A stretch of DNA of 64,000 nt, taken from contig CP115555.1 in the NCBI GenBank assembly GCA_030168575.1, positions 558,001 to 622,000 on the forward strand, written 5' to 3'. A program made the translations under genes and the position numbers. The stretch's first letter is position 1; each line of letters begins with the position of its first letter. Of this stretch, positions 39,426-57,703 are shown piece by piece. Origin of the DNA: Methanomassiliicoccales archaeon LGM-RCC1. Its GTDB lineage: Archaea; Thermoplasmatota; Thermoplasmata; Methanomassiliicoccales; Methanomethylophilaceae. The notes beneath the pieces were generated by a model. It did not search any database and was not told the DNA's origin. It was given only the letters and a program-made list of their open reading frames with translations.

Positions 39426-39610
39426 AATCTACGGTAAGAGTTTACCGTATTTATTGAGGTCTAAAGGTCGGAACTTAACCGTTGAAAATTATCGGCGCAT
39501 TATACCCTGTTAACATCTTCGGATAGACTGTATACGGAGTAAAGGCATAATATGCGCAAGATAGGACGAAATATCATCCAACATAGGATAGGGATGACGG
39601 GCAGTGTCCA

Positions 39611-40237
39611 TCATTTCTTCTGAACACGTCTGGAAAGGGCAATCTTGGATTCAGGTGTATCCGCCGGCGGCAGGAAACCGAGGTAGGTGTAGAACGGATT
39701 AGTGTACTTGGATTGCATATAAGTCTCGTAATCGGGGTCCAGGCTCGAGATGATCTTGAGTAGTATGTTACGGAGTTGCATCTTCTCCTCTATGGAGATG
39801 CTGTTGAAAGGGGAATTGATGGTCGTCTCGAAGTGCTCCATCGCATGTTCCGCAATAGCCCTGCCCATGTCGGTGATGTAATAATGATACTTCTTGCTGG
39901 TCGCGGATTCGCGGTCGTCCGTGACGTATCCCTTCTCCTTCAGGACCCTCATGACCCTGTTGGTGTTGGTCTGGTCGAGATCCAGGAACCTGGACAGTTC
40001 GACGATGGTCTGGCCGTCCTGAAGTTTCAATGCGATGAGATAGATGACATGTGCACTGGTGATACCGTAGCCCTTGACAGCCTCTGTCATGTTCTTCTTC
40101 ATGACATAGCTGACCCTGTCCATGAACGTCGGGAGGAGGGTATTCCAATAGTCGTCGTAGATCTCACCCATGTCATTCAAGTATTGTTCCTTTCTTATTT
40201 GAATGATATCTCCGTTGATATCAGAATGCAAGAGCAT
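39611..40237 (-). CDS. MarR-family transcriptional regulator
   Basis: A protein of up to 208 residues with a MarR winged helix: 'GYGITSAHVIYLIALKLQDGQTIVELSRFLDLDQTNTNRVMRVLKEKGYVTDDRES' (recognition helix) and wing 'KKYHYYITDMGRAIAEHAMEHF', with flanking dimer helices. The start is unsure. The ATG at 40237 lies only about 18 bases from a TATA box (TTATAATA near 40251-40258), so transcription may begin inside it; TTG 40180, seven bases after AAAGGA, or ATG 40171 are alternatives. It follows the methylamine operon and is the best candidate to control it. Confidence 0.85.
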   Translation of the reverse strand: MLLHSDINGDIIQIRKEQYLNDMGEIYDDYWNTLLPTFMDRVSYVMKKNMTEAVKGYGITSAHVIYLIALKLQDGQTIVELSRFLDLDQTNTNRVMRVLKEKGYVTDDRESATSKKYHYYITDMGRAIAEHAMEHFETTINSPFNSISIEEKMQLRNILLKIISSLDPDYETYMQSKYTNPFYTYLGFLPPADTPESKIALSRRVQKK

Positions 40238-40262
40238 CTTTCTTTCACCGTATTATAAAGTG

Positions 40263-40288
40263 TGGACCCGGCCCTGAGGCCGGATCCG
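40263..40288 (-). terminator. probable terminator of the dimethylamine operon
   Basis: GGACCCGGCC (40264-40273) and GGCCGGATCC (40278-40287) flank CTGA; on the minus strand all ten pairs form with one G-U. It begins ten bases past the stop of the 39-residue gene. It has no long T run, so termination is not certain. Confidence 0.5.
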
Positions 40289-40297
40289 AACAGGTTT

Positions 40298-40417
40298 TCA
40301 AAGTTTCTTGTGGAAGGTGCGTCCGATGTATGCGGAGACCACATACAGGGCAGCGACGACCACGATGAAGGCGATATCTGCGCCTTCGAATGCAAGCCAT
40401 TCGTCGATTCCGAACAT
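40298..40417 (-). CDS. 39-residue single-pass membrane protein
   Basis: A tiny gene encoding 39 residues. An acidic N-terminus ('MFGIDEWLAFEGAD') is followed by one transmembrane helix (about residues 15-31, 'IAFIVVVAALYVVSAYI') and a basic end 'GRTFHKKL', giving a strongly predicted orientation. GGAGTGA overlaps the previous gene's end and lies five bases before the ATG; spacing to the previous stop is 4 bases. It is the last gene of mtbC-mtbB-transporter-94 aa-39 aa, so a helper role for the transporter is likely from context only. Confidence 0.7.
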   Translation of the reverse strand: MFGIDEWLAFEGADIAFIVVVAALYVVSAYIGRTFHKKL

Positions 40418-40421
40418 GCTA

Positions 40422-40706
40422 TCACTCCAATAGGGTCTCGACTCTCATCGATCCGAAGTCGGTCAGCTTGTACTTGAACACGACCAAGTCCGCCTTGAAA
40501 CGGGATCCGTCGTCAATGGCTTCCTCGATGACCTCCAGCATTCCTCCGCCTGACAGCTCCATCAGGTAGAACCTCAGGGTGAACTTCCAGTAGTCGTTGT
40601 CGATGCCGTATTCGTTCTGGATCTTGCTTACAGCCTCATAATCCCACATGGGACCGTCCTTGAACGACTTCAGCAGTGCTGACTTGGTAGGCAGGACTTT
40701 GCTCAT
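40422..40706 (-). CDS. 94-residue unknown protein of the dimethylamine operon
   Basis: A 94-residue soluble protein, starting 'MSKVLPTKSALLKSFKDG'. It looks like a small winged-helix-like or alpha/beta unit: helix 7-20, helix 22-36, strand 40-47 ('KFTLRFYLMELSGGG'), helix 52-60 and beta-strands near the end ('LVVFKYKLTDFGSMRV'). GGAGGTG is six bases before the ATG at 40706, one base from the transporter stop. I recognise no family. Its place directly after the transporter suggests a function in dimethylamine uptake or its control. Confidence 0.7.
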   Translation of the reverse strand: MSKVLPTKSALLKSFKDGPMWDYEAVSKIQNEYGIDNDYWKFTLRFYLMELSGGGMLEVIEEAIDDGSRFKADLVVFKYKLTDFGSMRVETLLE

Positions 40707-40707
40707 C

Positions 40708-41763
40708 TCAGGCACCTCCAGTATCACGCATGCTGTCCTCGAGAGAATCGCTCTCCCAGTACATCACGAAGGTTCCGACGACTGCCAATACCACACCGAC
40801 GATAAGGGTCCAGTCGGGGATGATTCCGAGGAACACGAAGAGTGCGACCACGGATACGGGGACATACAGCGAACCGATGGCAAGGGTACGTCCGACTCCG
40901 AGCAGGGGGAATCCCTTGTACTGCATGACGTAGCACATTCCGAGAGTCATTCCGGCCATTCCGACCCAGAACAGGAAGTCTACATTGGAGTATGCCGCGG
41001 AGAACATGGTTCCGAAGTTGTCCATACCGAACAGTGCGATGGTAATGGGGAATACGATGACGAACCATACCAAGGCCTCCATGGAGTACCTGACGACGAC
41101 GCTTGAGTCGGAGTCGGTGACATCCAGTGCCCTGGACACGAAGTTACCTTCGAGTCCCCATCCGATGGCGGACATAATCGCTCCGATGTATCCGATGGCG
41201 GATCCTCCGGAGGAGATCTCCTCTATCATGACCGCAGGGTTGAGGATGACGACTCCTCCCACAACGATCAGGAGCAGACCGAGGATGGTCTTCTTGGAGA
41301 GCTTCTCCTTGTTGACGATCCTTCCGACTATCGCACCGACGACAGTTGACATCAATCCCATCGCAGCGGCGAACTGGGCACCGATGGCTCCGGTAGCGAT
41401 CATGGATCCGAGGATGGCGATAGGTCCGCCGAAGATGCATCCGACGAGGAACCATTTCGTGATCTTGAAGTTGCGGATGGTCCTGACGTAATCCTTCAGC
41501 TTTCCGGTTACTGCGGTCCAAAGGATGAGCAGGATGATGGTGAATAGCAATGCCTGCGTGGCAGATATGATGACCGAGGCCATGATGGTCCAGCTGGACT
41601 CATCCATGGTGACGGGCCCGTCTATGAACGGGGGCACGAACCATGCGAGCTGGAGAGGTACGTATCCGAGTCCCCAGAAAGCTGCGACCAGGAACACCCA
41701 GATGAATCCCCATCTTACACGGTTCTTCTTCGTTTTCTTTGACATTTCAGATAGGTCCGACAT
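40708..41763 (-). CDS. DMT/EamA-family permease, probable methylamine transporter
   Basis: A 351-residue membrane protein with ten hydrophobic segments arranged as two EamA-like halves (residues about 20-170 and 190-335). 'FWGLGYVPLQLAWF', 'GQGAIGAQFAAAMGLMSTVVGAIVGRI'-like and 'EGNFVSRALDVTD' elements fit the drug/metabolite transporter superfamily. The gene lies 42 bases after mtbB, which makes an amine substrate likely; Methanosarcina uses a different (APC-type) permease. The substrate is inferred from context. Confidence 0.82.
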   Translation of the reverse strand: MSDLSEMSKKTKKNRVRWGFIWVFLVAAFWGLGYVPLQLAWFVPPFIDGPVTMDESSWTIMASVIISATQALLFTIILLILWTAVTGKLKDYVRTIRNFKITKWFLVGCIFGGPIAILGSMIATGAIGAQFAAAMGLMSTVVGAIVGRIVNKEKLSKKTILGLLLIVVGGVVILNPAVMIEEISSGGSAIGYIGAIMSAIGWGLEGNFVSRALDVTDSDSSVVVRYSMEALVWFVIVFPITIALFGMDNFGTMFSAAYSNVDFLFWVGMAGMTLGMCYVMQYKGFPLLGVGRTLAIGSLYVPVSVVALFVFLGIIPDWTLIVGVVLAVVGTFVMYWESDSLEDSMRDTGGA

Positions 41764-41805
41764 AGTATCACTTGTTTAAGTTTGGATTCTTTAGCGATAA
41801 TCTGT

Positions 41806-43215
41806 TTACCTGTGAAGTTTCGCGATCTCTCTGAGACGGCTGCAGCTTGCGATCTCGATGCCCAGAATATCCTCGATGTTGAACTTGGCCTCGAGTCCGT
41901 AGGGAAGACCGGCTACTCCGGTGACGACACCGAGACCGTGCTCCTCACGGAATTCCCTCATGAAGCACTCGTCGGTGAGGTTGTTCTCATCGATTCCGAG
42001 CTTGTCCATGACGTACTTCTTGGAATCGGCAACCCTCATCTTGTTGCCCAGCTGGACCCTTGAGACGAGATCTCCTGCTGCACGCATTCCTCCGAGACCT
42101 GCTGCGAAGGTGTGAGCGATAGCTCCTCCGGGATCCCCTACTCCGATCTAAATACCGTCGACGTGGGCGATCTCGACCATACATTTGTCGGCACGGGTGA
42201 TCGCGTCGACCGGAGGCACCTCGTACATAGGCGTTCCGCCGACTCCCATTCCCATGTTGACCTGCAGAGGTACGTTGGATACCCTGGAGCACTCCTTGAT
42301 CATAGTGACCGAGCGTGCTACGTTCCATGCGGTGGACTTTGAAGTGTTGGTGTTGACGACAGGTCCGAATGTTGAAACCCCTGCCTTCTCTGCCAATGCG
42401 ACCTGCTGGTGGGGATACAGTCCTGCGACGACCTTTCCGTCATACTCGCAGACACCGTTGATTCCGAGAACGGTCTCGGCAGACATTCCCATCTGTATCA
42501 ACGCGTTAGGATAGAGCTCGCGCATCTTCTCGACCGCTTCGAGGCATCCTACGAAATCGATGTCCCCTCCGGAAGCGGATGTGTCGAAGTCAAGACCGTC
42601 CATTCCGACGGACATGAGCCTCTCTCCCATGAAGATGATATCATCGCGCATCGCGTCCTTGGCGAGCTGTCCGGCCTCCATGGCTTCGTCGATCTTGAAC
42701 TCCCTCATTAGGTCCGGGGGGTTCCCGAAGGGTCCGGTAGGCTCGTAGTACAGACCGATGTTGGGCATGAACATGTACAGCAACGGCGACACGGTGTTGG
42801 CCAGCGCGTTCTGGCAGTGGACCATCTCTGCTCCGATGACGGGCTTGATGGCCTTGGTGCTGGCATCGAAATAGGCAATCTCACAGACATCCAGCGAGCT
42901 CATGCGCTCGGTCACCTGGACGGCTGCCGTACGGCTCATCTCCAATCCCAATGCGGAGGAACCGCTGTCGGACAGGATCTTCTGCTCTCCTCCGTCGGCG
43001 GAAAGGACGACCTCCTCTCCGGGCTCGACGGAAACGATACGGCTCTTCTCGCACATTATGTCAACAATACGGGAGAGATCATCCTCGGTCAGTGCCGGGA
43101 CCTCTGCACAGTCGACGGCGTTGTGCATTCCGTCCTCGACATCTGCGCGGATCTGCTCCTTGGACATCCACTGGAGACTTCCGTCTCCCATACGCATACG
43201 ATAATCTAGTGTCAT
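41806..43215 (-). CDS. mtbB: dimethylamine methyltransferase MtbB with in-frame amber (pyrrolysine) codon
   Basis: A 469-residue MtbB that moves a methyl group from dimethylamine to the corrinoid protein MtbC. The frame holds one TAG, at 42148-42150 (codon 356), the position of pyrrolysine in Methanosarcina MtbB; the sequence before ('VEIAHVDGI') and after ('IGVGDPGGAIAHTFAAGLGG') continues the family. Read with Pyl the length (469) is normal; read as a stop it would lack the last 114 residues. The start, ATG 43215, is one base after the mtbC stop. Substrate follows from family identity. Confidence 0.95.
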
Positions 43216-43216
43216 C

Positions 43217-43855
43217 TCAATCACTCGCCAATGCTTTGACCTTGGTCGCGGTCTCCGATGCGGACTCTCCGTAGATGTCCGCGCCGATCTTCTCACAATA
43301 TGCCTGAGTTACGGGCGCTCCGCCGACAAGGATGGTGGTTTTGTCGCGGAGGCCCTCGCTCTCCAGCATCTCGATGACAGTCTTCATTCCGGTCATCGTG
43401 GTGGTCATGAGAGCGGACATTCCGCACATCGCGGCTCCGTTCTTGCATTCTTCAACGAAATTCTTCAGGGGTACATCCCTTCCGAGGTCGTGGATGTCGA
43501 ACCCTGCGCACTGAAGCATGGTCGATGTGATCGACTTTCCGATGTCGTGCACATCTCCCTCGACGGTACCCATGACGATGACCGTCTTCTTTCCGGCCTC
43601 TTCCCCGTCCTTCAGTAGGAGAGGGCCCAGCGTCTCCATGGCCTTGTTCATGCCTGCAGCGGCAGAGAGAACGTGGGGCAGGAACAGTTTCCCTCTCTCG
43701 AAGAGGACTCCTACCTCCGACATAGCATCTGCCATGGCGTCTATGATCGCTACAGGGTCCATACCTGCATCGAGCGCAGAATTCATCGCGCTGACGATCT
43801 CAGGTACTTTGCAGCCGACCATTGCGTCATGCAGCTTCTGTACATTTTCGTCCAT
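43217..43855 (-). CDS. mtbC: dimethylamine corrinoid protein MtbC
   Basis: A 212-residue corrinoid protein. Residues 1-85 are the four-helix cap; the cobalamin domain has 'GTVEGDVHDIGKSITSTML' with the axial His at residue 103, 'GMSALMTTTM' and 'ILVGGAPVT'. It carries the methyl group from MtbB to MtbA. GGAGGAATG precedes ATG 43855. It heads the operon; the leader carries a GGGACC/GGTCCC hairpin at about 43870-43886 between promoter and ribosome site. Confidence 0.94.
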   Translation of the reverse strand: MDENVQKLHDAMVGCKVPEIVSAMNSALDAGMDPVAIIDAMADAMSEVGVLFERGKLFLPHVLSAAAGMNKAMETLGPLLLKDGEEAGKKTVIVMGTVEGDVHDIGKSITSTMLQCAGFDIHDLGRDVPLKNFVEECKNGAAMCGMSALMTTTMTGMKTVIEMLESEGLRDKTTILVGGAPVTQAYCEKIGADIYGESASETATKVKALASD

Positions 43856-44143
43856 TGATTCATTCCTCCATGGGACCTTCTCGGTCCCCGTGAAAAATAA
43901 ATTGATTTAGCAATTATATAAATCTTGATAACTCCACAAAAATGATTAGAACACATGAATTTTCATGCCTTATCGGTAAAGTATAATTTACTTAAATTAG
44001 TTTTATTTATAAATATATAGGAAAGTATGTCCATAAATCAAGAATTTGTACTTGTTTTGAAATATTTATCATTTGTTTGAAAAATAATGAGTACTCACGA
44101 TTAAATATGAGTAGTACGATAATTTATTCATAAGGTGAAGTTC
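43856..44143. promoter_or_regulatory. divergent control region of the mtb and mtt operons
   Basis: An AT-rich spacer of 288 bases. On the minus strand a TATA box (TTATATAAT type, near 43912-43921) serves mtbC; its leader forms the hairpin GGGACC-GAGAA-GGTCCC. On the plus strand TTTATTTATAAATATATAG (about 44001-44019) is a probable TATA region for the mttB fusion, leaving a leader of about 100 bases. Between the promoters lies a 14-base palindrome (CATGAA, TT, TTCATG; 43954-43967), a candidate operator. AAGGTG before ATG 44144 is the ribosome site. Confidence 0.6.
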
Positions 44144-46366
44144 ATGAAGAACATCAGAAGCGAAGTATTGACCAAAGAGGAATTGGATCGGATCCATGAG
44201 GCCACGATGAATGTCCTGATGAATCCGGGTCTCCGCGTGGATCATGATGGTGCAAGAGCCCTGCTTAAAGAAAAGGGCTGCATAGTGGACGATGAGACTC
44301 GTGTTGTGAAATTCCCCAGAGAGCTTGTAGAAAAATGCATCGAGTCCACTCCCGACACATTCTTCATGTACGGGCGTGACGGGAAGCACCCTGTCGAGAT
44401 GGTCAGCGACGGTTCGAAGACCAACTATCTGACCTTTGGTGTAGGAACCGAGTACGCCGAATACGTCGGTCCCGGCAAGGTGAATGTCAGAGCAAGCACC
44501 ATGAAGGACCTTGCGAACATCTCGAAGCTCACTAGCGGTCTGGAGAACATAGATTGGATGTGCGCACCTGTTTCCGCCATGGATATGGCGATCGAGACCG
44601 ACAAATGCAGGCCGCTAAGGGAATGGAAGGCGATCTTCACAAACCTTGTCAAACCGCTCATGGCGGATCCCGATCCGAGATACATCAAAGAATATTTCGA
44701 GATGGAGGTCGCCATGTACAACGGTGACCGCGAGAGGGCTCTGAAAGAACCCATCTCCATCATGGGATGCTGTCCTTCAAGTCCGCTCCAGTTGGATGAG
44801 GGATTCGGAATGTTCGCACTCGAGGCACCGAAATACGGATTCCCAATGATGGTCCTAAGTATGGCCATGGGCGCCGCTTCGGCCCCCATCAACATCGCGG
44901 GAACGCTAGTCATCCACAACGCCGAGGTGCTTGCAGGAATCACACTCATCCAGTGCGCCTTCCCCGGAGCTCCCTGCTTCTACGGAAGTTCCACCACCGC
45001 GTTCGATTTCTACAGCAATTCCGCACCCGTCGGATCTCCCGAGCTCGCTCTCATCAGCTCCGGAGTAGCACAGTTGGGAAGATACTACAGAATCCCCACC
45101 GTCGTCGCCGGTACATAGTCTGATGCCAAGAGGTCCAACGCACAGGCCGGTCACGAGAAGACCATCACCGGACTGCTGCCCGCACTCAACGGAGCATCCA
45201 ACATCTACGGTTCCGGAATGCTCTCTCTGGGAATGGACTTCTCCATGGAGCAGCTGGTCATCGACAACGATATCATCGGCATGATGAACTACGCCATGGG
45301 CAGGGGAATCGAGGTCAATGAGGAGACCATCGGATACCAGACCATCGTCGATGTCGGAATAGGTAACAATTTCCTGTCCTGTCCAGACACCCTGTCTCAC
45401 ACCGACAACCCCTCCAGGCCCAGAGTGATCGACCGTAACATGCGTCCCGATTGGGAATCGAACGGATTCAAGGACACGGCAGATTTCGCGCATGAGATCG
45501 TCGTTGACATTCTCGAGAACTTCGAGGTCGAACCTCTGAGCGATTATGCGATCAAGAGGATCGACGAGATCATCGCAGAGGTCGAAGCCAGGATGAAAGA
45601 GGAGGCGGAGGCAGCTCCTGCGGCAGAAGCAGCCACAGAAGTCCCCAAAGAATCGTCAGCCAAAAAGATGAAACCTGCAGCCGAGACCAAGAAGAGGACC
45701 ATCGACGTCTCCCCGGAGAGGCAGAAGGAACTCGAAGAGACAGCATTCAACTGCGTATGCAAGTATGATGTCAACGGATGCAAGAAGGTCTCCCAGGCCG
45801 CCATAGATGAGGGCGCGGACCTCATCAGCCTGATAGACAATGGATACACCAGGGCGATCCAGCACATAGGCGAGCTGTTCGATCAGGAGAAGATCTTCCT
45901 GCCCCATATGATGGCCGCAGCAGGTTCGATGAGCGCAGGTGTCGATATTCTCTCTCCATACCTTGCATCGGATTCAACGGATTCCAAGGGCAACATCGTC
46001 ATGTGCACCATCGAGGGAGACATCCACTCCATCGGCAAGGACATTTGTTCCATCATGCTGAAGGTCGGAGGATACAACGTCATAAACCTCGGTAAGGACG
46101 TCCCCCTTGATACCATAGTCCAGGCTTGCAAGGACAACGATGCGGTCGGAGTCGGAACATCAGCACTCATGACCTCCACCATGGTTGGTCAGAAGACATT
46201 CGAGGAGAAGATCGTGCAGGCCGGGCTCAAGGGCAAATGCCTGACGAATGTCGGTGGCGCACCTGTTAGCCAGCAGTGGGCCGATGACATCGGTGCGGAC
46301 ATATATTCCGAGAGCTCCAACGATATCGTCAGCAAATTTGACAAAGCTCTGTCGGATGCAGATTGA
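44144..46366 (+). CDS. mttB-mttC: trimethylamine methyltransferase-corrinoid protein fusion (MttB-MttC) with in-frame amber codon
   Basis: A 740-residue fusion read through one TAG (45116-45118, codon 325). Residues 1-480 are MttB, which demethylates trimethylamine; the amber codon lies between 'RIPTVVAGT' and 'SDAKRSNAQAGHEKTI', the Pyl site. A linker rich in Ala/Glu/Pro/Lys (about residues 485-525) leads to a complete corrinoid domain: helical cap, 'CTIEGDIHSIGKDICSIMLKV' (axial His 628), 'GVGTSALMTSTM' and 'LTNVGGAPVSQQ'. In Methanosarcina MttB and MttC are separate. ATG 44144 has AAGGTGA upstream; GTG 44135 is a weaker option. No separate mttC is seen nearby. Confidence 0.92.
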
Positions 46367-46375
46367 GGTGATAAG

Positions 46376-47872
46376 ATGGAGAATCTGAAGCTTCAAATCC
46401 TCACGGAGGAAGAGATCAAGAAGATCCATGCATGTTCGCTGGACATCCTGTCGACAGTCGGTGTTTCAGTGGGTGATTCCGAAGCTAGGTCGATATTCAA
46501 GAAAGCTGGATGCTCAGTGGACGAATCCTCGAAAGTGGTCCGCATACCCCCTTCCATCGTGGACGAATGTCTTCATTCTGTTCCTAAGAGCTTTATCCTT
46601 CACGGTCGCGATTCGAAGTTTGATGTAAAGATGGTCGGAGATGGTTCCGTCACCAACTACATCAACCTTGGAATAGGGACGAGAACCGCCATATACAACG
46701 GAGACGGCTCGTATGACATTAGGGATGCGACTTTGAGGGACGAGGCTAACTTTGCCATGGTCCTAGAGAGCTGTGAGAACATCAATTGGTTTACTCAACC
46801 TGCCTCTGCGATGGATCTGATTAATACCAAATGTGCCCGCAGCCTGCATGAAGTGGATGCGATGATGAGTAACTGTGCAAAACCGTTCCTTCCCGATCCA
46901 GATGTCAACTATATCGACACATATTTCGAGATGATCAAGACGGTCTATAGCGGAGATGAGGAAGAGGCCAGGAAGAGGCCTTTTTTCATTATCGGAGGAA
47001 CAACCTCCAGTCCGCTACAGCTCGATGCTCATATGTGTCAATTGTACATCCGTGCATGTAGGAATAGTCTGCCGGTCATGACAATGACCATGGAGATGGC
47101 AGGAACCACTTCACCGATACACCTGGCGGGTACCCTGGTCCTGCATAATTGCGAGGCACTTACGAATGTGGTTCTGGCCCAACTGTGCAGGAAGGGGACA
47201 CCCGTTATCTACGGCACTGCTACTACAGCTTTCGATTTCGTGGACAGCACTGCACCCTTCGGATGTCCCGAAGCTGCTCTTCTGAGTTCTGCACTGGCTC
47301 AGATAGCACAATTCTACGGTCTTCCGAACATCACGACAGGTGGAGGTTCCGATTCCATTCATGTCGATGCACAGGCAGGACACGAGAGCACCCTGACCGC
47401 TATGCTGACCCAATTGGCCGGATCTAACAACGTATTTGGTTCAGGACTAATCGAACTCGGAATGACATTCTCATTGGAGGAACTCGTGCTCAGAGATGAG
47501 ATGATCTCCATGGAGAAGAGGGTTAAACATGGGATAAGGGTCGATGATGAGACACTTTCAGTAGATGCCATCAAAGCAATAGGTATTGCAGGAGACTTCA
47601 TAACACGCCCGGAGACTATAGCAAACTTCGATTCGATGTCCAAGACTTTGACATTCAACAGAAAGATGTATGATGATTGGATCAATTCCGATCCTAGAGA
47701 TGCTCTGGATCGCGCGCATGCAAAGGTGACCGATATCCTCTTTAACTATCAGCCTACCCCTGTTGATTCAGATGTGCGTAAGCAGCTTGATCAGATTATC
47801 ATAAATGCCGATAAGGCAGAAGGTGCAACGGAATCTACACAAAACCTCCTAGATCGTGTTCACCATCTATAA
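46376..47872 (+). CDS. MttB homologue without pyrrolysine (MtgB-like methyltransferase)
   Basis: A 498-residue member of the trimethylamine methyltransferase superfamily, co-linear with the MttB half upstream. At the Pyl position it has Gly (GGT at 47345-47347, codon 324), in 'NITTGGGSDSIHVDAQAGHES'. In other organisms non-Pyl MttB proteins (MtgB and relatives) use glycine betaine, carnitine or other quaternary amines, so a non-trimethylamine substrate is likely. It starts 9 bases past the fusion gene (GAGGTGA, four bases before ATG) and could pass methyl groups to the fused corrinoid domain. Confidence 0.88.
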   Translation: MENLKLQILTEEEIKKIHACSLDILSTVGVSVGDSEARSIFKKAGCSVDESSKVVRIPPSIVDECLHSVPKSFILHGRDSKFDVKMVGDGSVTNYINLGIGTRTAIYNGDGSYDIRDATLRDEANFAMVLESCENINWFTQPASAMDLINTKCARSLHEVDAMMSNCAKPFLPDPDVNYIDTYFEMIKTVYSGDEEEARKRPFFIIGGTTSSPLQLDAHMCQLYIRACRNSLPVMTMTMEMAGTTSPIHLAGTLVLHNCEALTNVVLAQLCRKGTPVIYGTATTAFDFVDSTAPFGCPEAALLSSALAQIAQFYGLPNITTGGGSDSIHVDAQAGHESTLTAMLTQLAGSNNVFGSGLIELGMTFSLEELVLRDEMISMEKRVKHGIRVDDETLSVDAIKAIGIAGDFITRPETIANFDSMSKTLTFNRKMYDDWINSDPRDALDRAHAKVTDILFNYQPTPVDSDVRKQLDQIIINADKAEGATESTQNLLDRVHHL

Positions 47873-47882
47873 ACACCTTAGA

Positions 47883-47914
47883 CCCTCCCAATACTCGCTC
47901 GGGGGAGGGTTTCA
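47883..47914 (+). terminator. hairpin terminator of the mtt operon
   Basis: CCCTCCC (47883-47889) pairs with GGGAGGG (47903-47909), followed by TTTC. Confidence 0.6.
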
Positions 47915-47985
47915 ACCTTGTTTCAATCCTTTGACCGGATGAAGAACGGAGAGTTCTGATCAGGATTCAGTCATTAACCGCCTAA

Positions 47986-48036
47986 AAACATCTTACAGGC
48001 TGGACGATGTTTCCTCCTATTATATGGTCCAGCCTG
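47986..48036. other. potential H-type RNA pseudoknot in the spacer
   Basis: Two long, perfect, interleaved complementary pairs: AAACATC (47986-47992) with GATGTTT (48006-48012), and CAGGCTGGAC (47996-48005) with GTCCAGCCTG (48027-48036). The second stem's first arm lies in the first stem's loop, which is the classic pseudoknot layout, or two mutually exclusive hairpins. The strand is not known: it could be the 3' region of the mtt operon or of the 58-residue gene on the minus strand. The rest of the 47873-48085 spacer shows only the terminator. Confidence 0.45.
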
Positions 48037-48085
48037 GATCTGTTACATTCATTCTGTTTTCACAGACAAATAGAGTAAGAGAAGT

Positions 48086-52237: not shown

Positions 52238-55200
52238 ATGAATACAAAAGGAATGAAATTCCTGGCAGTCTTGGCTGTTCTCGCTATGGCTTTCGCTGCA
52301 TTCGCTGTCATCGCACCTGCGGAGACAGAGGATGCGTCTTCTAATAGCTCGGCACAGAACATTCCTGTGGTGCCCACGGACAAGATACTTGTGACAAGCG
52401 GTAAGTATTACACAAGTCAAAGCATCGAAGTCCAGTTGGACGGAAACCAAGACAATACTGGGGAAAAACTTATCACTCTGTACGTAGCGACAGGAGCAAC
52501 AGTGACTGTGACCGTCGCAGATGGAACATCAGACTACGGTCATATTGCGATCTATCCTGTCATATCTGCGACACAGAATCCCAACGGAACATACAATGTT
52601 ACCTTCGATGGCACAGCGTATCACTACGTTACGCCTGAATTGGTGACCGGCGAATCCATCGCTGTGAACTCGATTCTAACGAGTGCGAACACAGCCCAGA
52701 TAGTCTATACGGCCATCGAGTCGTTGACCTCCACAAATGTTGTCAGCGAAGTCACCTTCAAGGGAACCCAGAACAAACCTGTCGTTTTGAGTGCTAATAC
52801 AAGCGCAGTAATCAATGCTGAGAACTTCTCATTGACTGGCGAGGGTGTTACCCTGTACATTTCAGGCGATACCGCCAAATTTGTCACTCTGAAGAACTTC
52901 ACAGGAAAGATCGGATACGGAGCAGAACACACACTCGTCATCACCAACATATCCTCTGGAAGTGTCATCTCCACCGGATTGGACATCGTGTTGAACGGAA
53001 CCGTCAGCGCCAACGCTTCGCTGACAGTCAACGACGCAGCGCTTACTTCAGACGGTGCAGAGTCTAGTCTGAAGAACTACGGAACGATCGTCGTCGAAGA
53101 CACTGAAGCCGACGGAGCTGCAACAATTGATGTTGCAACGGCCTATGATAAGACAAACAGTTCAGGTACACTCACGATCAAGGGTTTCACACCCGTAGCA
53201 GCTAATGTGCCGTTTGCTTTCAACTTCTATGCCCATGACGACAGCCCAATCTCGCAATACACGGTAGATGGACAACTATTCACCATCGCCGATGTCCAGA
53301 CGATCGGTGGCGTGTCCTATGTAGCTTCGACCAACACATATACAGTGTATGGAGTCTTCACCGGCGTTTCTGGAGCGGCGTTAAACAGTTTCAATGCCCT
53401 TTACGGTGAGACCTACATAAGCAACGGTCACTACTATTACGGACTGTTGTTTGGAAACGCTACTGCGGGAGCTTACTTCCAGTTCGGATTGAATTCGTCC
53501 TGGACTGAGGCCTCGGTTGTTAACAACAAATGTCTGAAGGTATTTGACGGAACCTCTCAGTCCTTCAAATTCAAGACCTCGGCCACATCTTCCGGCTCTA
53601 ATCCCACAGAGTACACGATCAACATCGATGTTACTGGTGCATCAATAGCAACACAGGAAGCTCTGGATGCTCTAATTGCGAACAGCAACTCTATCGATTC
53701 CGATCTTACGATCACCAATGCTGTCATACTCAAGAATGATGCTGTTCTTGCGACTGGAAAGACCATAACGCTCAATGGAGGAAACCTCACTGTTGATTCC
53801 AACAAGAGGCTGACGCTTGGTAGTGATTCCAAGATCATCAAACAGGCTGATGAGAAGATTGTCAACAAGGGAACCATCTACGCTTCCAAAGATGCGACAA
53901 TCTCTGCTTCAATTGAGTCCGGAACCGGAGATAATGTAGCTGCTGCAACACTCGATAACCTCAAGGCAGGAAACGGTGGACTGACATTCAACGTCGGATC
54001 CATAGATATGTACGGAAGCATCACGAGCGGAACGTTCACACTGACCGACGGTGTACTGAAGATCACCAGGAACCTCACCATCGGTAACGGCACAGCTGCA
54101 GCATCCATTGTTATCAACTATACGAACAACGAGAAAATCGTTATCAGCAAGAATGTTACCGTTACCGTTTCAAAGAATGCAACACTCGGAGATAACAACA
54201 CCGAAATCATTGAGAACTACGGAACCATAGAGGTTTCTGGAACCGTCGTCGGAAAGATCCAGGGAACCGCAAAGGACAAGGGAACGGTCTCTATCACGGA
54301 CAAAACCGCAACATTCCTCGGAAGCGATATCGATCTGGACACCCAGAGCGTCATCACGACCGCCATCAAGGATCCCGCAACGATGTCAGGTAACGTCTAT
54401 GCGGATAATACCTACTTCGTAGGACAGTATCTCACACTGACAGGTGACACCACTTTGATGAACGAGACTGATTGGATCTTCCAGACCGCTACCCTCGAGA
54501 TCCCTGCAGGGGTAACCCTTACCATCAGCAAGGGATCGTCGATCGCACTTATGGGATACTCCCAGATAATCAACAACGGAACCATTGTGATTGCGAACGA
54601 TGCCGACGGAAAGGTCATTAAGCAGACCAACGCTGGTGAATTTGGACATTCTGACACATCCTACATCATCAACAACGGAACCATCTCGTTCACCGCCGCC
54701 TCTGGAAAGGAGATTACTAACGGCCATGACCCGATAGACTCTATTGTTAAGAACGCAGGAACCATTCAGATGAAAGGAACTGCGGCTAGCACCACCCCTC
54801 TCGTAGCTGTCGGAACAGTCGCTCTTACATTCGACAATCTGAACAACACGGAGAACGGAACGATCCTCGTAGATAACGATGCGACCCTCACCGCTGATAC
54901 AAAGTTCGTTAACGCAGGAGTCATCACTGTGAACGGAGAGATCGCAGGTGAGATTAATGAGAACAGCGGATACGTTACCGTCAACGGTGTCCTCAACGCG
55001 AATATTAGTAAAAACTCAGGAGTCGTCACGATCAACGGAAAGCTCAAGAGTGATGTTATCATCACCAATGTCAAGGCTTCCGCGAACTCAAAGGTCACCG
55101 GCGCTTATGTCATCATCGAGAAGGTCGTAAGTGACCCGGATACATACAGCCTAAAGACCCTGACCATCAGGGATGGAGACGGCCCCAACGACAACAGCGT

Positions 55201-57703
55201 AGCTATCGTCTGCGGCACCATCATGCACGGCGACACCTCGGCAAGCGACACCGGATGGGATTTCAAACTCACCGGACTCAACATCTACTACGCAAGTGTC
55301 TATGACGATTCGACAGCAACACCTGTTGTCGAGAACGGCATGTTCCTCAGCGGAGACGTTGCGGTCGCATACACCGGAGACAAGGCTTTCAAGAACCTCA
55401 CCAGCGCAGTCACCATCAGGCTGGCCGGAGACGATCTCGGAGTCACATCGGAACTCACAACCGACAAGGGCGTGAAGATCGTTAACAACGGTGTCCTAAC
55501 AGTCGATGGAACGATGAAGTACAACAACTCCACCGATGCCATCCAGGAGGATCTCTCCGCTAAGATCGTCGCCCTCGGAATGGTCGAGACCTACGTCAAG
55601 CCCGTCACCGGACAGGTCGACGGCGCCATGTACACCACATACGTGGAGATCGAAGAGGTCAAGTACTACACCTACCACTACACCACCCTGGTCAAGGCCA
55701 TCGAGAACGGTGCGACCGAGATCACCATCAGCGGAGAGCAGGAAGTCGAGGAGAGCGTGACCGTGCCTTCGGGAGTCACCATCGTCCACGACAGCCTCAT
55801 CACCGTCAACGATGATGTCACCATGACCATCAAGGACGGCGCCAAGATAACCGCCACCGATGAGTTCTACAACACCGGAGAGGTCACCATCGATGTCCTC
55901 GGAACATTCGTCGTGGAGGACAAGACCACCGGAATCGGAAAGGAGAAGATCCAGAGCGATGTCCTCAACGCCGGCGACAAGCTCGCCCAGTACACCAACA
56001 TCAAGAAAGCACTGGACGCAGCAGTGTCCGGAGACACCGTCAAGCTCAACAAGGACGAAGTGTCGACCACCAAGGACCTCACCGTCAATACCGGAGTCGT
56101 CCTCCAGATCGACGGAGGCAAGACCCTTACCGTCACCGGAGCAAAGCTCACGAACAACGGTATCGTGTTCCTCAACTCCGGAAACCTCGTCGTCAAGGAC
56201 AAGGATGCCAACACCAAGGGATCCATCGAGCTCAACGGACTCATGAAGTCCACCGAGTACTTCCAGAACCCTGTTGCCGGAACCAACTACGCCAAGAACA
56301 TCAGCGGAGCGTACTACCAGGAGGGTGCGTACTACTACATCTCCTCCATACCCTACGCCATGAACAAGATCGACGACATATCAGACATCAGGTTCGGAGG
56401 AACCAATGTGCTGACCGCTGACCTCACTGTGTCGCCCGCAGCCGCCACCTCCATCACCGTTCTCGGAGACTTCACCGTCACCAAGTTCATCATGTCCAAG
56501 ATGACACTGAACCTGACTGAGGGCAAGAAGCTCGTCGGAACCTTCGGAGATGCAAACGGATCCATCACACTGACCGATGCAACCGTTGGTACTGTCGGAA
56601 AGAAGATCGAGACCTCTGCAACCAAGGGATTCGTAGTCGACACCACTTTCGGTACCGTGACCAACGGAACCTTTGGCGCATCCACCGACGGGGCCGTGAC
56701 CATCAACCAGAAAGTCACGCCTCTGACAGTCAAGACCGGAACCGCCACCCTCAAAGCAGATGTTGCTAAGCTCACCGTCAACGCCGGCGCAGTCGCAGTT
56801 GCCGGAGCCAACATCAAGGTAACCGAGGCTACCATCTTCGGAGAGCTCAACGGAGTGAAGAACGACGACACCACATACACGGTCACTTCTCAGATCCTGT
56901 ATGTTGGCGGAAAGTCGAGCGACATCCTTGCAGCCACCGGAACCATCGGACCCAAGGTGCTCCTGGAGACCAATGGAGTAGCTGGTTCTACCACTGGTGT
57001 AGCTTATGTGCTCCCCGGATGCACTGTCAGCGATGACCTTGCAAAGCAGGAGAACGTCAAGCACGTGACCTTCACCGTCGAAGGAAAGAAGATCCTCGAT
57101 GTCTACGTCCTCAACGGACAGAAGATCAAGCAACCCAAGACCTCTGTCGTCGACGGAGTCGTTAGCAATGAATGGAAGGACGGCAACGACACGTTGACCT
57201 TCACTAACAAAGTATCTGGAGCAGTTAACAAGGATCTGAACCTCATTGCCCAGATCGAGACTAAGATCTACGATGTCACCCTCAGGGTCGACTCCGGTAT
57301 CGGAACCGTCTATTTCGAGGGAAGGATTCTGGAGCCCACCGAAGCTGGTTCACACACCTATGTGATCGAGAACTTGGCTAAGGGAACCTACACCTTTGAC
57401 TACGTCATCGCAGCCGGATACAACGAGTTCACCGCAGAACTCTCTATCGGTTCAGATACCGGAGATGAAGCTAAGTACGTGACAGTAAGTGGCCTCGAAT
57501 TCACCCTCGGCGGATCTTCTGCTGACAACACTGCAATCAATCTGGACCTCTACGGATCCACCGCAATCGACGACACGCCCATACCCGAGCCCGAACCCCT
57601 CGCGCCCGAGACCTGGAGCGTCACCACCATCCTCCTGCTGATCCTCGTGATCCTGATCGCCATCATGGCAGTCATCGTCGCGATCAGGCTCAACAGGAGC
57701 TGA
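52238..57703 (+). CDS. giant surface protein, beta-helix adhesin-like, with C-terminal membrane anchor
   Basis: An 1821-residue secreted protein. A signal peptide ('MKFLAVLAVLAMAFAAFAV', residues 6-24) leads a very long, Thr/Asn/Gly-rich chain of beta-helix units of the form 'NNGTI..' ('IINNGTIVIAND', 'IVKNAGTIQMKG', 'VNAGVITVNGEIAG'). Two copies of a larger module ('YTTLVKAIENGATEITI', 'YTNIKKALDAAVSGDTVKL') lie near residues 1150 and 1250. The end is a Pro/Glu spacer and one transmembrane helix ('SVTTILLLILVILIAIMAV') with a basic tip, so it is anchored in the cell membrane. It is likely an adhesin or S-layer-linked protein. GC content rises from about base 55,150, marking a mosaic. Confidence 0.88.
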   Translation: MNTKGMKFLAVLAVLAMAFAAFAVIAPAETEDASSNSSAQNIPVVPTDKILVTSGKYYTSQSIEVQLDGNQDNTGEKLITLYVATGATVTVTVADGTSDYGHIAIYPVISATQNPNGTYNVTFDGTAYHYVTPELVTGESIAVNSILTSANTAQIVYTAIESLTSTNVVSEVTFKGTQNKPVVLSANTSAVINAENFSLTGEGVTLYISGDTAKFVTLKNFTGKIGYGAEHTLVITNISSGSVISTGLDIVLNGTVSANASLTVNDAALTSDGAESSLKNYGTIVVEDTEADGAATIDVATAYDKTNSSGTLTIKGFTPVAANVPFAFNFYAHDDSPISQYTVDGQLFTIADVQTIGGVSYVASTNTYTVYGVFTGVSGAALNSFNALYGETYISNGHYYYGLLFGNATAGAYFQFGLNSSWTEASVVNNKCLKVFDGTSQSFKFKTSATSSGSNPTEYTINIDVTGASIATQEALDALIANSNSIDSDLTITNAVILKNDAVLATGKTITLNGGNLTVDSNKRLTLGSDSKIIKQADEKIVNKGTIYASKDATISASIESGTGDNVAAATLDNLKAGNGGLTFNVGSIDMYGSITSGTFTLTDGVLKITRNLTIGNGTAAASIVINYTNNEKIVISKNVTVTVSKNATLGDNNTEIIENYGTIEVSGTVVGKIQGTAKDKGTVSITDKTATFLGSDIDLDTQSVITTAIKDPATMSGNVYADNTYFVGQYLTLTGDTTLMNETDWIFQTATLEIPAGVTLTISKGSSIALMGYSQIINNGTIVIANDADGKVIKQTNAGEFGHSDTSYIINNGTISFTAASGKEITNGHDPIDSIVKNAGTIQMKGTAASTTPLVAVGTVALTFDNLNNTENGTILVDNDATLTADTKFVNAGVITVNGEIAGEINENSGYVTVNGVLNANISKNSGVVTINGKLKSDVIITNVKASANSKVTGAYVIIEKVVSDPDTYSLKTLTIRDGDGPNDNSVAIVCGTIMHGDTSASDTGWDFKLTGLNIYYASVYDDSTATPVVENGMFLSGDVAVAYTGDKAFKNLTSAVTIRLAGDDLGVTSELTTDKGVKIVNNGVLTVDGTMKYNNSTDAIQEDLSAKIVALGMVETYVKPVTGQVDGAMYTTYVEIEEVKYYTYHYTTLVKAIENGATEITISGEQEVEESVTVPSGVTIVHDSLITVNDDVTMTIKDGAKITATDEFYNTGEVTIDVLGTFVVEDKTTGIGKEKIQSDVLNAGDKLAQYTNIKKALDAAVSGDTVKLNKDEVSTTKDLTVNTGVVLQIDGGKTLTVTGAKLTNNGIVFLNSGNLVVKDKDANTKGSIELNGLMKSTEYFQNPVAGTNYAKNISGAYYQEGAYYYISSIPYAMNKIDDISDIRFGGTNVLTADLTVSPAAATSITVLGDFTVTKFIMSKMTLNLTEGKKLVGTFGDANGSITLTDATVGTVGKKIETSATKGFVVDTTFGTVTNGTFGASTDGAVTINQKVTPLTVKTGTATLKADVAKLTVNAGAVAVAGANIKVTEATIFGELNGVKNDDTTYTVTSQILYVGGKSSDILAATGTIGPKVLLETNGVAGSTTGVAYVLPGCTVSDDLAKQENVKHVTFTVEGKKILDVYVLNGQKIKQPKTSVVDGVVSNEWKDGNDTLTFTNKVSGAVNKDLNLIAQIETKIYDVTLRVDSGIGTVYFEGRILEPTEAGSHTYVIENLAKGTYTFDYVIAAGYNEFTAELSIGSDTGDEAKYVTVSGLEFTLGGSSADNTAINLDLYGSTAIDDTPIPEPEPLAPETWSVTTILLLILVILIAIMAVIVAIRLNRS

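What the first reader, a model, noticed from the sequence alone, without database searches (positions are those of the whole stretch)
44144..46366. MttB fused to its own corrinoid protein, with pyrrolysine codon inside
The frame with TAG at codon 325 continues into a full MttB C-terminus, an Ala/Glu/Pro/Lys linker, and a complete corrinoid domain (axial His in GDIHSIGKD). In described methanogens MttB and MttC are separate. A fusion would tether the corrinoid cofactor to the methyltransferase and fix stoichiometry, while the neighbouring mtbB and mtbC remain separate. Whether the fused domain can still reach the MtbA methyltransferase or a second MttB is open.
Basis: partly seen in the sequence, partly recalled or inferred. 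Interest (0 to 1): 0.75.

Follow-up and report, generated by a model that had tools for sequence, protein, structure and literature searches.

The report
Amine demethylase fused to its cofactor carrier
A gut methane-making archaeon carries, on a strain-specific gene cassette, one gene in which an amine-demethylating enzyme containing the rare amino acid pyrrolysine is joined to the B12-carrying protein that normally comes as a separate partner; the join is real but rare, found in 3 of 97 relatives examined.

Summary
In detail: one frame (44144-46366, 740 codons, about 80.4 kDa) encodes an MttB-type methyltransferase with a single in-frame TAG at codon 325, a 41-residue linker, and a complete MttC-type corrinoid domain. 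It is not a sequencing error: two other genomes carry fused homologues at 69% and 55-56% identity. The fusion is rare: 3 of 97 full-length MttB-family proteins in 147 Methanomassiliicoccales genomes, 0 of 58 canonical MttBs. (1) The methyltransferase half is not the canonical trimethylamine MttB; it belongs to a divergent Pyl-MttB group (called MttB-II here). This genome keeps an ordinary, unfused mttB and mttC elsewhere. (2) The gene lies on an 8.6-kb cassette absent from a same-species genome, and its MttC half descends from another genus. (3) Fused MttB domains fall in two lineages, so fusion happened twice or was reshuffled. Catalytic residues of both halves are intact. Most likely it works as a tethered MttB-MttC pair feeding MtbA. 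Because the UAG lies upstream, the corrinoid domain is made as part of this protein only when pyrrolysine is decoded. The substrate is unproven. No description of an MttB-MttC fusion was found in the papers searched. Verdict: new variant of a known kind.

The parts
44144..46366 (+). Fused gene, MttB-II (Pyl) :: linker :: MttC, 740 aa, stop TGA
44144..45604 (+). MttB-II methyltransferase domain, residues 1-487; Pyl325, Tyr355, Gly99, Met240 match M. barkeri Pyl334, Tyr364, Gly110, Met249
   Evidence: TIGR02369 548 bits, cut-off 525
45116..45118 (+). In-frame TAG, codon 325 (pyrrolysine position)
   Evidence: aligned with Pyl334 of 7xcl
45605..45727 (+). Ala/Glu/Pro/Lys-rich linker, residues 488-528, predicted disordered at 499-516
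45728..46363 (+). MttC-type corrinoid domain, residues 529-740; triad His628, Asp626, Thr679
46376..47872 (+). Pyl-less MttB paralogue; Gly at the Pyl position, Phe at the Tyr364 position; its Shine-Dalgarno touches the stop of the fused gene
43217..43855 (-). mtbC, separate dimethylamine-type corrinoid protein
41806..43257 (-). mtbB, dimethylamine methyltransferase with in-frame TAG
40708..41763 (-). EamA-type membrane transporter, conserved cassette member
40422..40727 (-). 101-aa conserved cassette protein, no family match
39611..40237 (-). MarR-family regulator, conserved cassette member
39491..48082 (.). Strain-specific cassette: the flanks abut, 12 bases apart, in same-species genome G077

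Best explanation
The gene makes one polypeptide: a pyrrolysine-containing MttB-family methyltransferase of a divergent group (MttB-II) carrying its methyl-accepting corrinoid domain on a flexible C-terminal linker. By homology (inferred): Pyl325 binds a methylated amine (trimethylamine or a related tertiary amine); the tethered corrinoid, ligated by His628, docks over Pyl in its own or the dimer-partner subunit and takes the methyl group; MtbA then moves it to coenzyme M. Tethering replaces diffusion of a separate MttC and makes the corrinoid domain, as part of this protein, only if UAG 325 is decoded as Pyl. Shown: the frame, the domains, the catalytic residues, fused homologues in two other genomes, cassette mobility. 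Inferred: activity, substrate, docking, tethering benefit.
For: Continuous frame with both domains complete. Fused homologues in G040 and G077. Coding-type substitutions on both sides of the join. Pyl, Tyr364-, Gly110-, Met249- and Gly372-equivalents kept; corrinoid His/Asp/Thr kept. Predicted fold (mean pLDDT 84) with a disordered linker; MttB half matches 7xcl (TM 0.91 by target length), MttC half matches 7xcn chains (about 0.80). Pyrrolysyl-tRNA synthetase and MtaA/MtbA-family methyltransferases are in the genome. In M. barkeri six MttC dock on one MttB hexamer, each touching the dimer partner's loop (PMC9842639), which fits a 1:1 fusion. In some relatives mttC lies directly after mttB-II (G119 C3, G075 C15), so loss of one stop would give the fusion.
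Against: No expression or protein data. MttB-II differs from canonical MttB at positions contacting MttC or corrinoid (E225Q, T111V), so partner fit and substrate may differ. An internal ATG at codon 484 has a fair Shine-Dalgarno (-7.9 kcal/mol), so some free MttC could be made too. The corrinoid domain scores below the curated TIGR02370 cut-off (199 against 215 bits).
Confidence: 0.75

Rival explanations
1. Two products from one gene: internal initiation near codon 484, or proteolysis in the linker, releases free MttC, so the fusion is functionally ordinary MttB plus MttC.
For: ATG 484 in the window has an SD-like site of -7.9 kcal/mol against a median of -8.1 for 83 separate mttC genes; linker disordered.
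Against: G077's fused gene has no good internal start (GTG 509, -2.7) and G040's is weaker (-5.9). No stop separates the halves, so any ribosome that passes the UAG makes the full fusion.
Confidence: 0.12
2. The tethered corrinoid domain mainly serves the Pyl-less MttB encoded 10 bases downstream, or both enzymes, acting as a shared methyl carrier for a Pyl and a non-Pyl substrate.
For: No separate mttC in the cassette. Seven of 11 non-Pyl MttBs lie beside an MttB-II gene. In G097 mttC lies between an MttB-II and a non-Pyl MttB; in G124 it follows both.
Against: The other two fusion cassettes (G040, G077) lack a neighbouring non-Pyl MttB. Fusion to the Pyl enzyme favours that partner.
Confidence: 0.3
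3. A decaying or misassembled horizontally acquired gene with no function.
For: Strain-specific island; long branches of fused MttC domains.
Against: All catalytic residues kept; coding-type substitution pattern; two other genomes share the architecture.
Confidence: 0.05
4. A canonical trimethylamine MttB that merely happens to be fused.
For: Passes the TIGR02369 equivalog cut-off, 548 against 525 bits. In G040 (about 91% complete) it is the only MttB found.
Against: Outside the canonical clade, which is supported 100/100, with group-specific changes near the active site. 14 of 19 genomes with MttB-II also hold a canonical MttB, suggesting a different role.
Confidence: 0.35

Closest known systems
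MttB and MttC of Methanosarcina barkeri (PDB 7xcl, 7xcn; PMC9842639)
   Same: Both folds, Pyl, Tyr364/Gly110 and the corrinoid His-Asp-Thr triad; one MttC per MttB subunit
   Different: Separate proteins there; 45% identity; E225Q and T111V here; here both sit in one chain with a 41-residue linker
MttB and MttC of other Methanomassiliicoccales (e.g. M. luminyensis, PMC5688252)
   Same: Pyl-MttB with its corrinoid partner beside mtbB/mtbC
   Different: Unfused in 94 of 97 cases; the canonical clade is never fused (0 of 58)
Fused corrinoid/methyl transfer proteins MtsD, MtsF, MtsH and CmtA (cited in PMC7374477), CmuA (own knowledge), MetH
   Same: Corrinoid domain in one chain with a methyltransferase
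   Different: From own knowledge those join the corrinoid domain to an MtaA/MtbA-type or MetH-type enzyme; here the substrate-activating, Pyl-containing MttB is joined
MtgB-type Pyl-less MttB superfamily (2qne, 9yce)
   Same: MttB fold
   Different: 26-27% identity in the fold comparison, no Pyl

Membership tests
MttB, trimethylamine methyltransferase (TIGR02369, PF06253) | Score above the curated equivalog cut-off | tested here: met
   548 against 525 bits
MttB, trimethylamine methyltransferase (TIGR02369, PF06253) | In-frame amber codon at the Pyl334 position, with the activating Tyr364 and Gly110 | tested here: met
   Residues 325, 355, 99
MttB, trimethylamine methyltransferase (TIGR02369, PF06253) | Lies in the clade of canonical MttB with M. 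barkeri MttB | tested here: not met
   Canonical clade 100/100 excludes it
MttB, trimethylamine methyltransferase (TIGR02369, PF06253) | Demethylates trimethylamine | not testable with these tools
   Needs an assay
MttC, corrinoid protein (TIGR02370 and MttC clade) | Score above the TIGR02370 cut-off | tested here: not met
   199.4 against 215.3 bits
MttC, corrinoid protein (TIGR02370 and MttC clade) | Groups with MttC rather than MtbC or MtmC | tested here: met
   Inside the clade with M. barkeri MttC, 99/99
MttC, corrinoid protein (TIGR02370 and MttC clade) | Axial His with Asp and Thr triad | tested here: met
   His628, Asp626, Thr679
MttC, corrinoid protein (TIGR02370 and MttC clade) | Binds corrinoid | not testable with these tools
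   Needs purified protein
Fused corrinoid/methyl transfer proteins (MtsD/F/H, CmtA, CmuA) | Corrinoid domain fused to an MtaA/MtbA-type (MT2) methyltransferase | tested here: not met
   No TIGR01463 match in the fused protein

The most novel reading that the evidence does not exclude
A Pyl-gated, self-contained methyl-transfer enzyme that has arisen at least twice on mobile cassettes: the corrinoid domain is translated only after UAG is read as pyrrolysine, stays tethered within an MttB hexamer, and also serves a Pyl-less MttB made from the next gene, so one carrier handles a Pyl-dependent and a Pyl-independent substrate not used by the canonical TMA system.
Probability: 0.2. Interest if true: 0.7.

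Novelty: new variant of a known kind. Interest (0 to 1): 0.5.

Why it matters
MttB and MttC have been studied as separate proteins that must find each other. A natural 1:1 fusion gives a ready-made single-chain complex for structural and kinetic work on pyrrolysine-dependent methyl transfer, and a direct test of whether corrinoid proteins must leave MttB to reach MtbA. It also marks a little-studied group of Pyl-MttB enzymes, spread on mobile cassettes among gut and rumen methanogens, whose substrates are unknown, and it shows how translation of a corrinoid domain can be placed behind a pyrrolysine codon.

Tried and rejected
Long 'open_frame' values (over 700) reported for other MttBs with the fused query (e.g. 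G108, G105) proved to be adjacent genes in one frame separated by TGA or TAA, not fusions. Alphaproteobacterial MttB frames of 578-688 aa had no corrinoid match and their extra length is upstream. A scan of genome contigs with the single protein found nothing; the second scan, with an alignment, found only the two known fused relatives, three unfused relatives and a distant homologue. One common origin of all three fusions: rejected for MttB domains (lnL difference 197, p-AU 2e-72) but not for MttC domains (p-AU 0.33), so one fusion followed by replacement of the MttB half stays possible. Literature searches for an MttB-MttC fusion gave no description.

Full report
What is there. The window is bases 558001-622000 of a single-contig 1.66-Mb genome of the Methanomassiliicoccales (and later genome search outputs). 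Frame 44144-46366 encodes 740 codons with one internal stop, TAG at codon 325. Pfam places MTTB at 6-481 and the two B12-binding domains at 531-603 and 617-720. The closest solved structures are M. barkeri MttB (7xcl/7xcm) over 5-479 and MttC (7xcn) over 529-737. Between them lies a 41-residue Ala/Lys/Glu/Pro-rich linker. The frame is preceded by a Shine-Dalgarno; the next gene, a Pyl-less MttB at 46376-47872, starts 10 bases after the stop with a strong Shine-Dalgarno.

Is it an error? No. The order was searched with the protein and with PF06253 over 147 genomes. Of 97 full-length MttB-family proteins extracted, three are fused in one frame: the window, G040 (68-69% identity, contig SUSU01000015, MAG SIG2) and G077 (55-56%, contig SUTB01000001, MAG SIG9, a genome of the same species as the window). 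Several apparent fusions were in-frame neighbours separated by TGA or TAA. Differences between the window and G040 concentrate at third codon positions in both halves, as expected for translated sequence; the linker itself is barely conserved (27% identity).

What the methyltransferase half is. In trees of MttB domains, M. barkeri MttB and 58 Pyl-MttBs of the order form the canonical clade; the fused proteins sit outside it in a divergent set of 24 Pyl-containing proteins from genera g1, g7, g9 and g14 of one family, called MttB-II here for convenience. MttB-II is not resolved as one clade: four of its members fall beside the canonical clade with 80/93 support. MttB-II keeps Pyl334, Tyr364, Gly372 and, in 22 of 24, Gly110 and Met249, the residues discussed in PMC9842639, but has Gln for Glu225 (the salt-bridge partner of MttC Arg130) in 22 of 24, Val or Ile for Thr111 in 22 of 24, and Ala for Gly253 in 22 of 24. 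Fourteen of 19 genomes with MttB-II also have a canonical MttB. The window's genome has its canonical mttB at C1 135657-137150 with a separate mttC at 134975. So the fused enzyme is an extra methyltransferase, and calling it 'the' TMA methyltransferase is not established, although it passes the TIGR02369 cut-off and in G040 it is the only MttB found.

What the corrinoid half is. It falls within MttC, with M. barkeri MttC (99/99). In the window and G040 it nests among the separate MttCs of genus g7 (100/98), not with the window genome's own MttCs, which group with genus g1. The window's gene therefore has a foreign corrinoid half. The cassette's mtbC genes in the three fusion-bearing genomes also group together across genera (100/98). 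His628, Asp626 and Thr679 match the triad His107-Asp105-Thr158 described for MttC.

Mobility. In G077, of the same species, DNA flanking the window's cassette matches at 99% and 95% and is contiguous: window 39490 and 48083 are 12 bases apart there. About 8.6 kb (MarR regulator, 101-aa protein, EamA transporter, mtbB, mtbC, the fusion, the Pyl-less MttB) is therefore absent at that site. G077 has its own related cassette, with a 55-56% identical fusion, elsewhere. The same gene set recurs around unfused MttB-II genes in other genomes. No tRNA gene was found in the window, and no mobility gene was identified in the cassette.

Origins. Fused MttB domains are split between {window, G040}, with unfused G034 as sister (100/100), and G077, with unfused G045 as sister (100/99); holding the three together costs 197 log-likelihood units (p-AU 2e-72). 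MttC domains do not reject one clade (p-AU 0.33). Two fusion events, or one fusion followed by replacement of the MttB half, both fit. All three fusions lie in MttB-II (3 of 24 against 0 of 58 canonical). In relatives such as G119 C3 and G075 C15 mttC follows mttB-II directly, a simple precursor for fusion by loss of a stop codon.

How it most likely works. The prediction gives two folded halves and a disordered stretch at 499-516 (mean pLDDT 84.4), matching MttB (TM 0.91 by target length) and MttC as in the MttB-MttC complex (about 0.80). In M. barkeri one MttB hexamer carries six MttC, each touching its catalytic subunit chiefly through the cofactor and the dimer partner's loop. A fusion keeps that 1:1 ratio, and the linker could let the domain reach its own or the partner's active site; this is inference. 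Pyrrolysyl-tRNA synthetase and MtaA/MtbA-type methyltransferases are present. Because the UAG lies 5' of the corrinoid domain, that domain is made as part of this protein only when the UAG is decoded. A separate internal start at codon 484 is possible in the window but is not supported in G077.

Literature. Papers on Methanomassiliicoccales methylotrophy and pyrrolysine (PMC4153887, PMC3941956, PMC5011839, PMC5688252, PMC7824343, PMC10804542, PMC10673518) and on MttB structure (PMC9842639) were searched for fusion terms without a description of an MttB-MttC fusion. Fused corrinoid/methyl transfer proteins of another kind (MtsD/F/H, CmtA) are known (PMC7374477). Only open-access text was searched, so an earlier report elsewhere cannot be excluded.

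Verdict. Real, rare, probably functional; a new variant of the known MttB-MttC system. Interest 0.5: the architecture is striking and testable, but each half is of a known family and domain fusion in corrinoid methyltransferases has precedents.

Noticed in passing
window 46376-47872, with loci L077, L080, L083, L084: A Pyl-less MttB lineage (9 proteins, one clade 100/99) with Gly, Ile, Val or Ala at the Pyl position and Phe or Thr at the Tyr364 position; of 11 Pyl-less MttBs tabulated, 7 lie beside an MttB-II gene. It looks derived from Pyl-containing MttBs, but the rooting is weak. Substrate unknown.
   Followed up: partly
genome C1 152394-153929 (locus L092): A third MttB-type gene with Glu at the Pyl position, beside an mttC nearly identical to the canonical one at C1 134975.
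   Followed up: no
locus L084, 98-1573: A member of the Pyl-less MttB lineage (Ile at the Pyl position) whose read-through frame nevertheless contains a TAG elsewhere.
   Followed up: no
window 39491-48082: Clean strain-specific insertion of a methylamine cassette with no recombinase or tRNA identified; the mechanism of insertion is unknown.
   Followed up: partly
window 52238-57703: A 1821-aa repetitive protein with a signal-like N-terminus and a C-terminal membrane helix, probably a surface adhesin-like protein.
   Followed up: no
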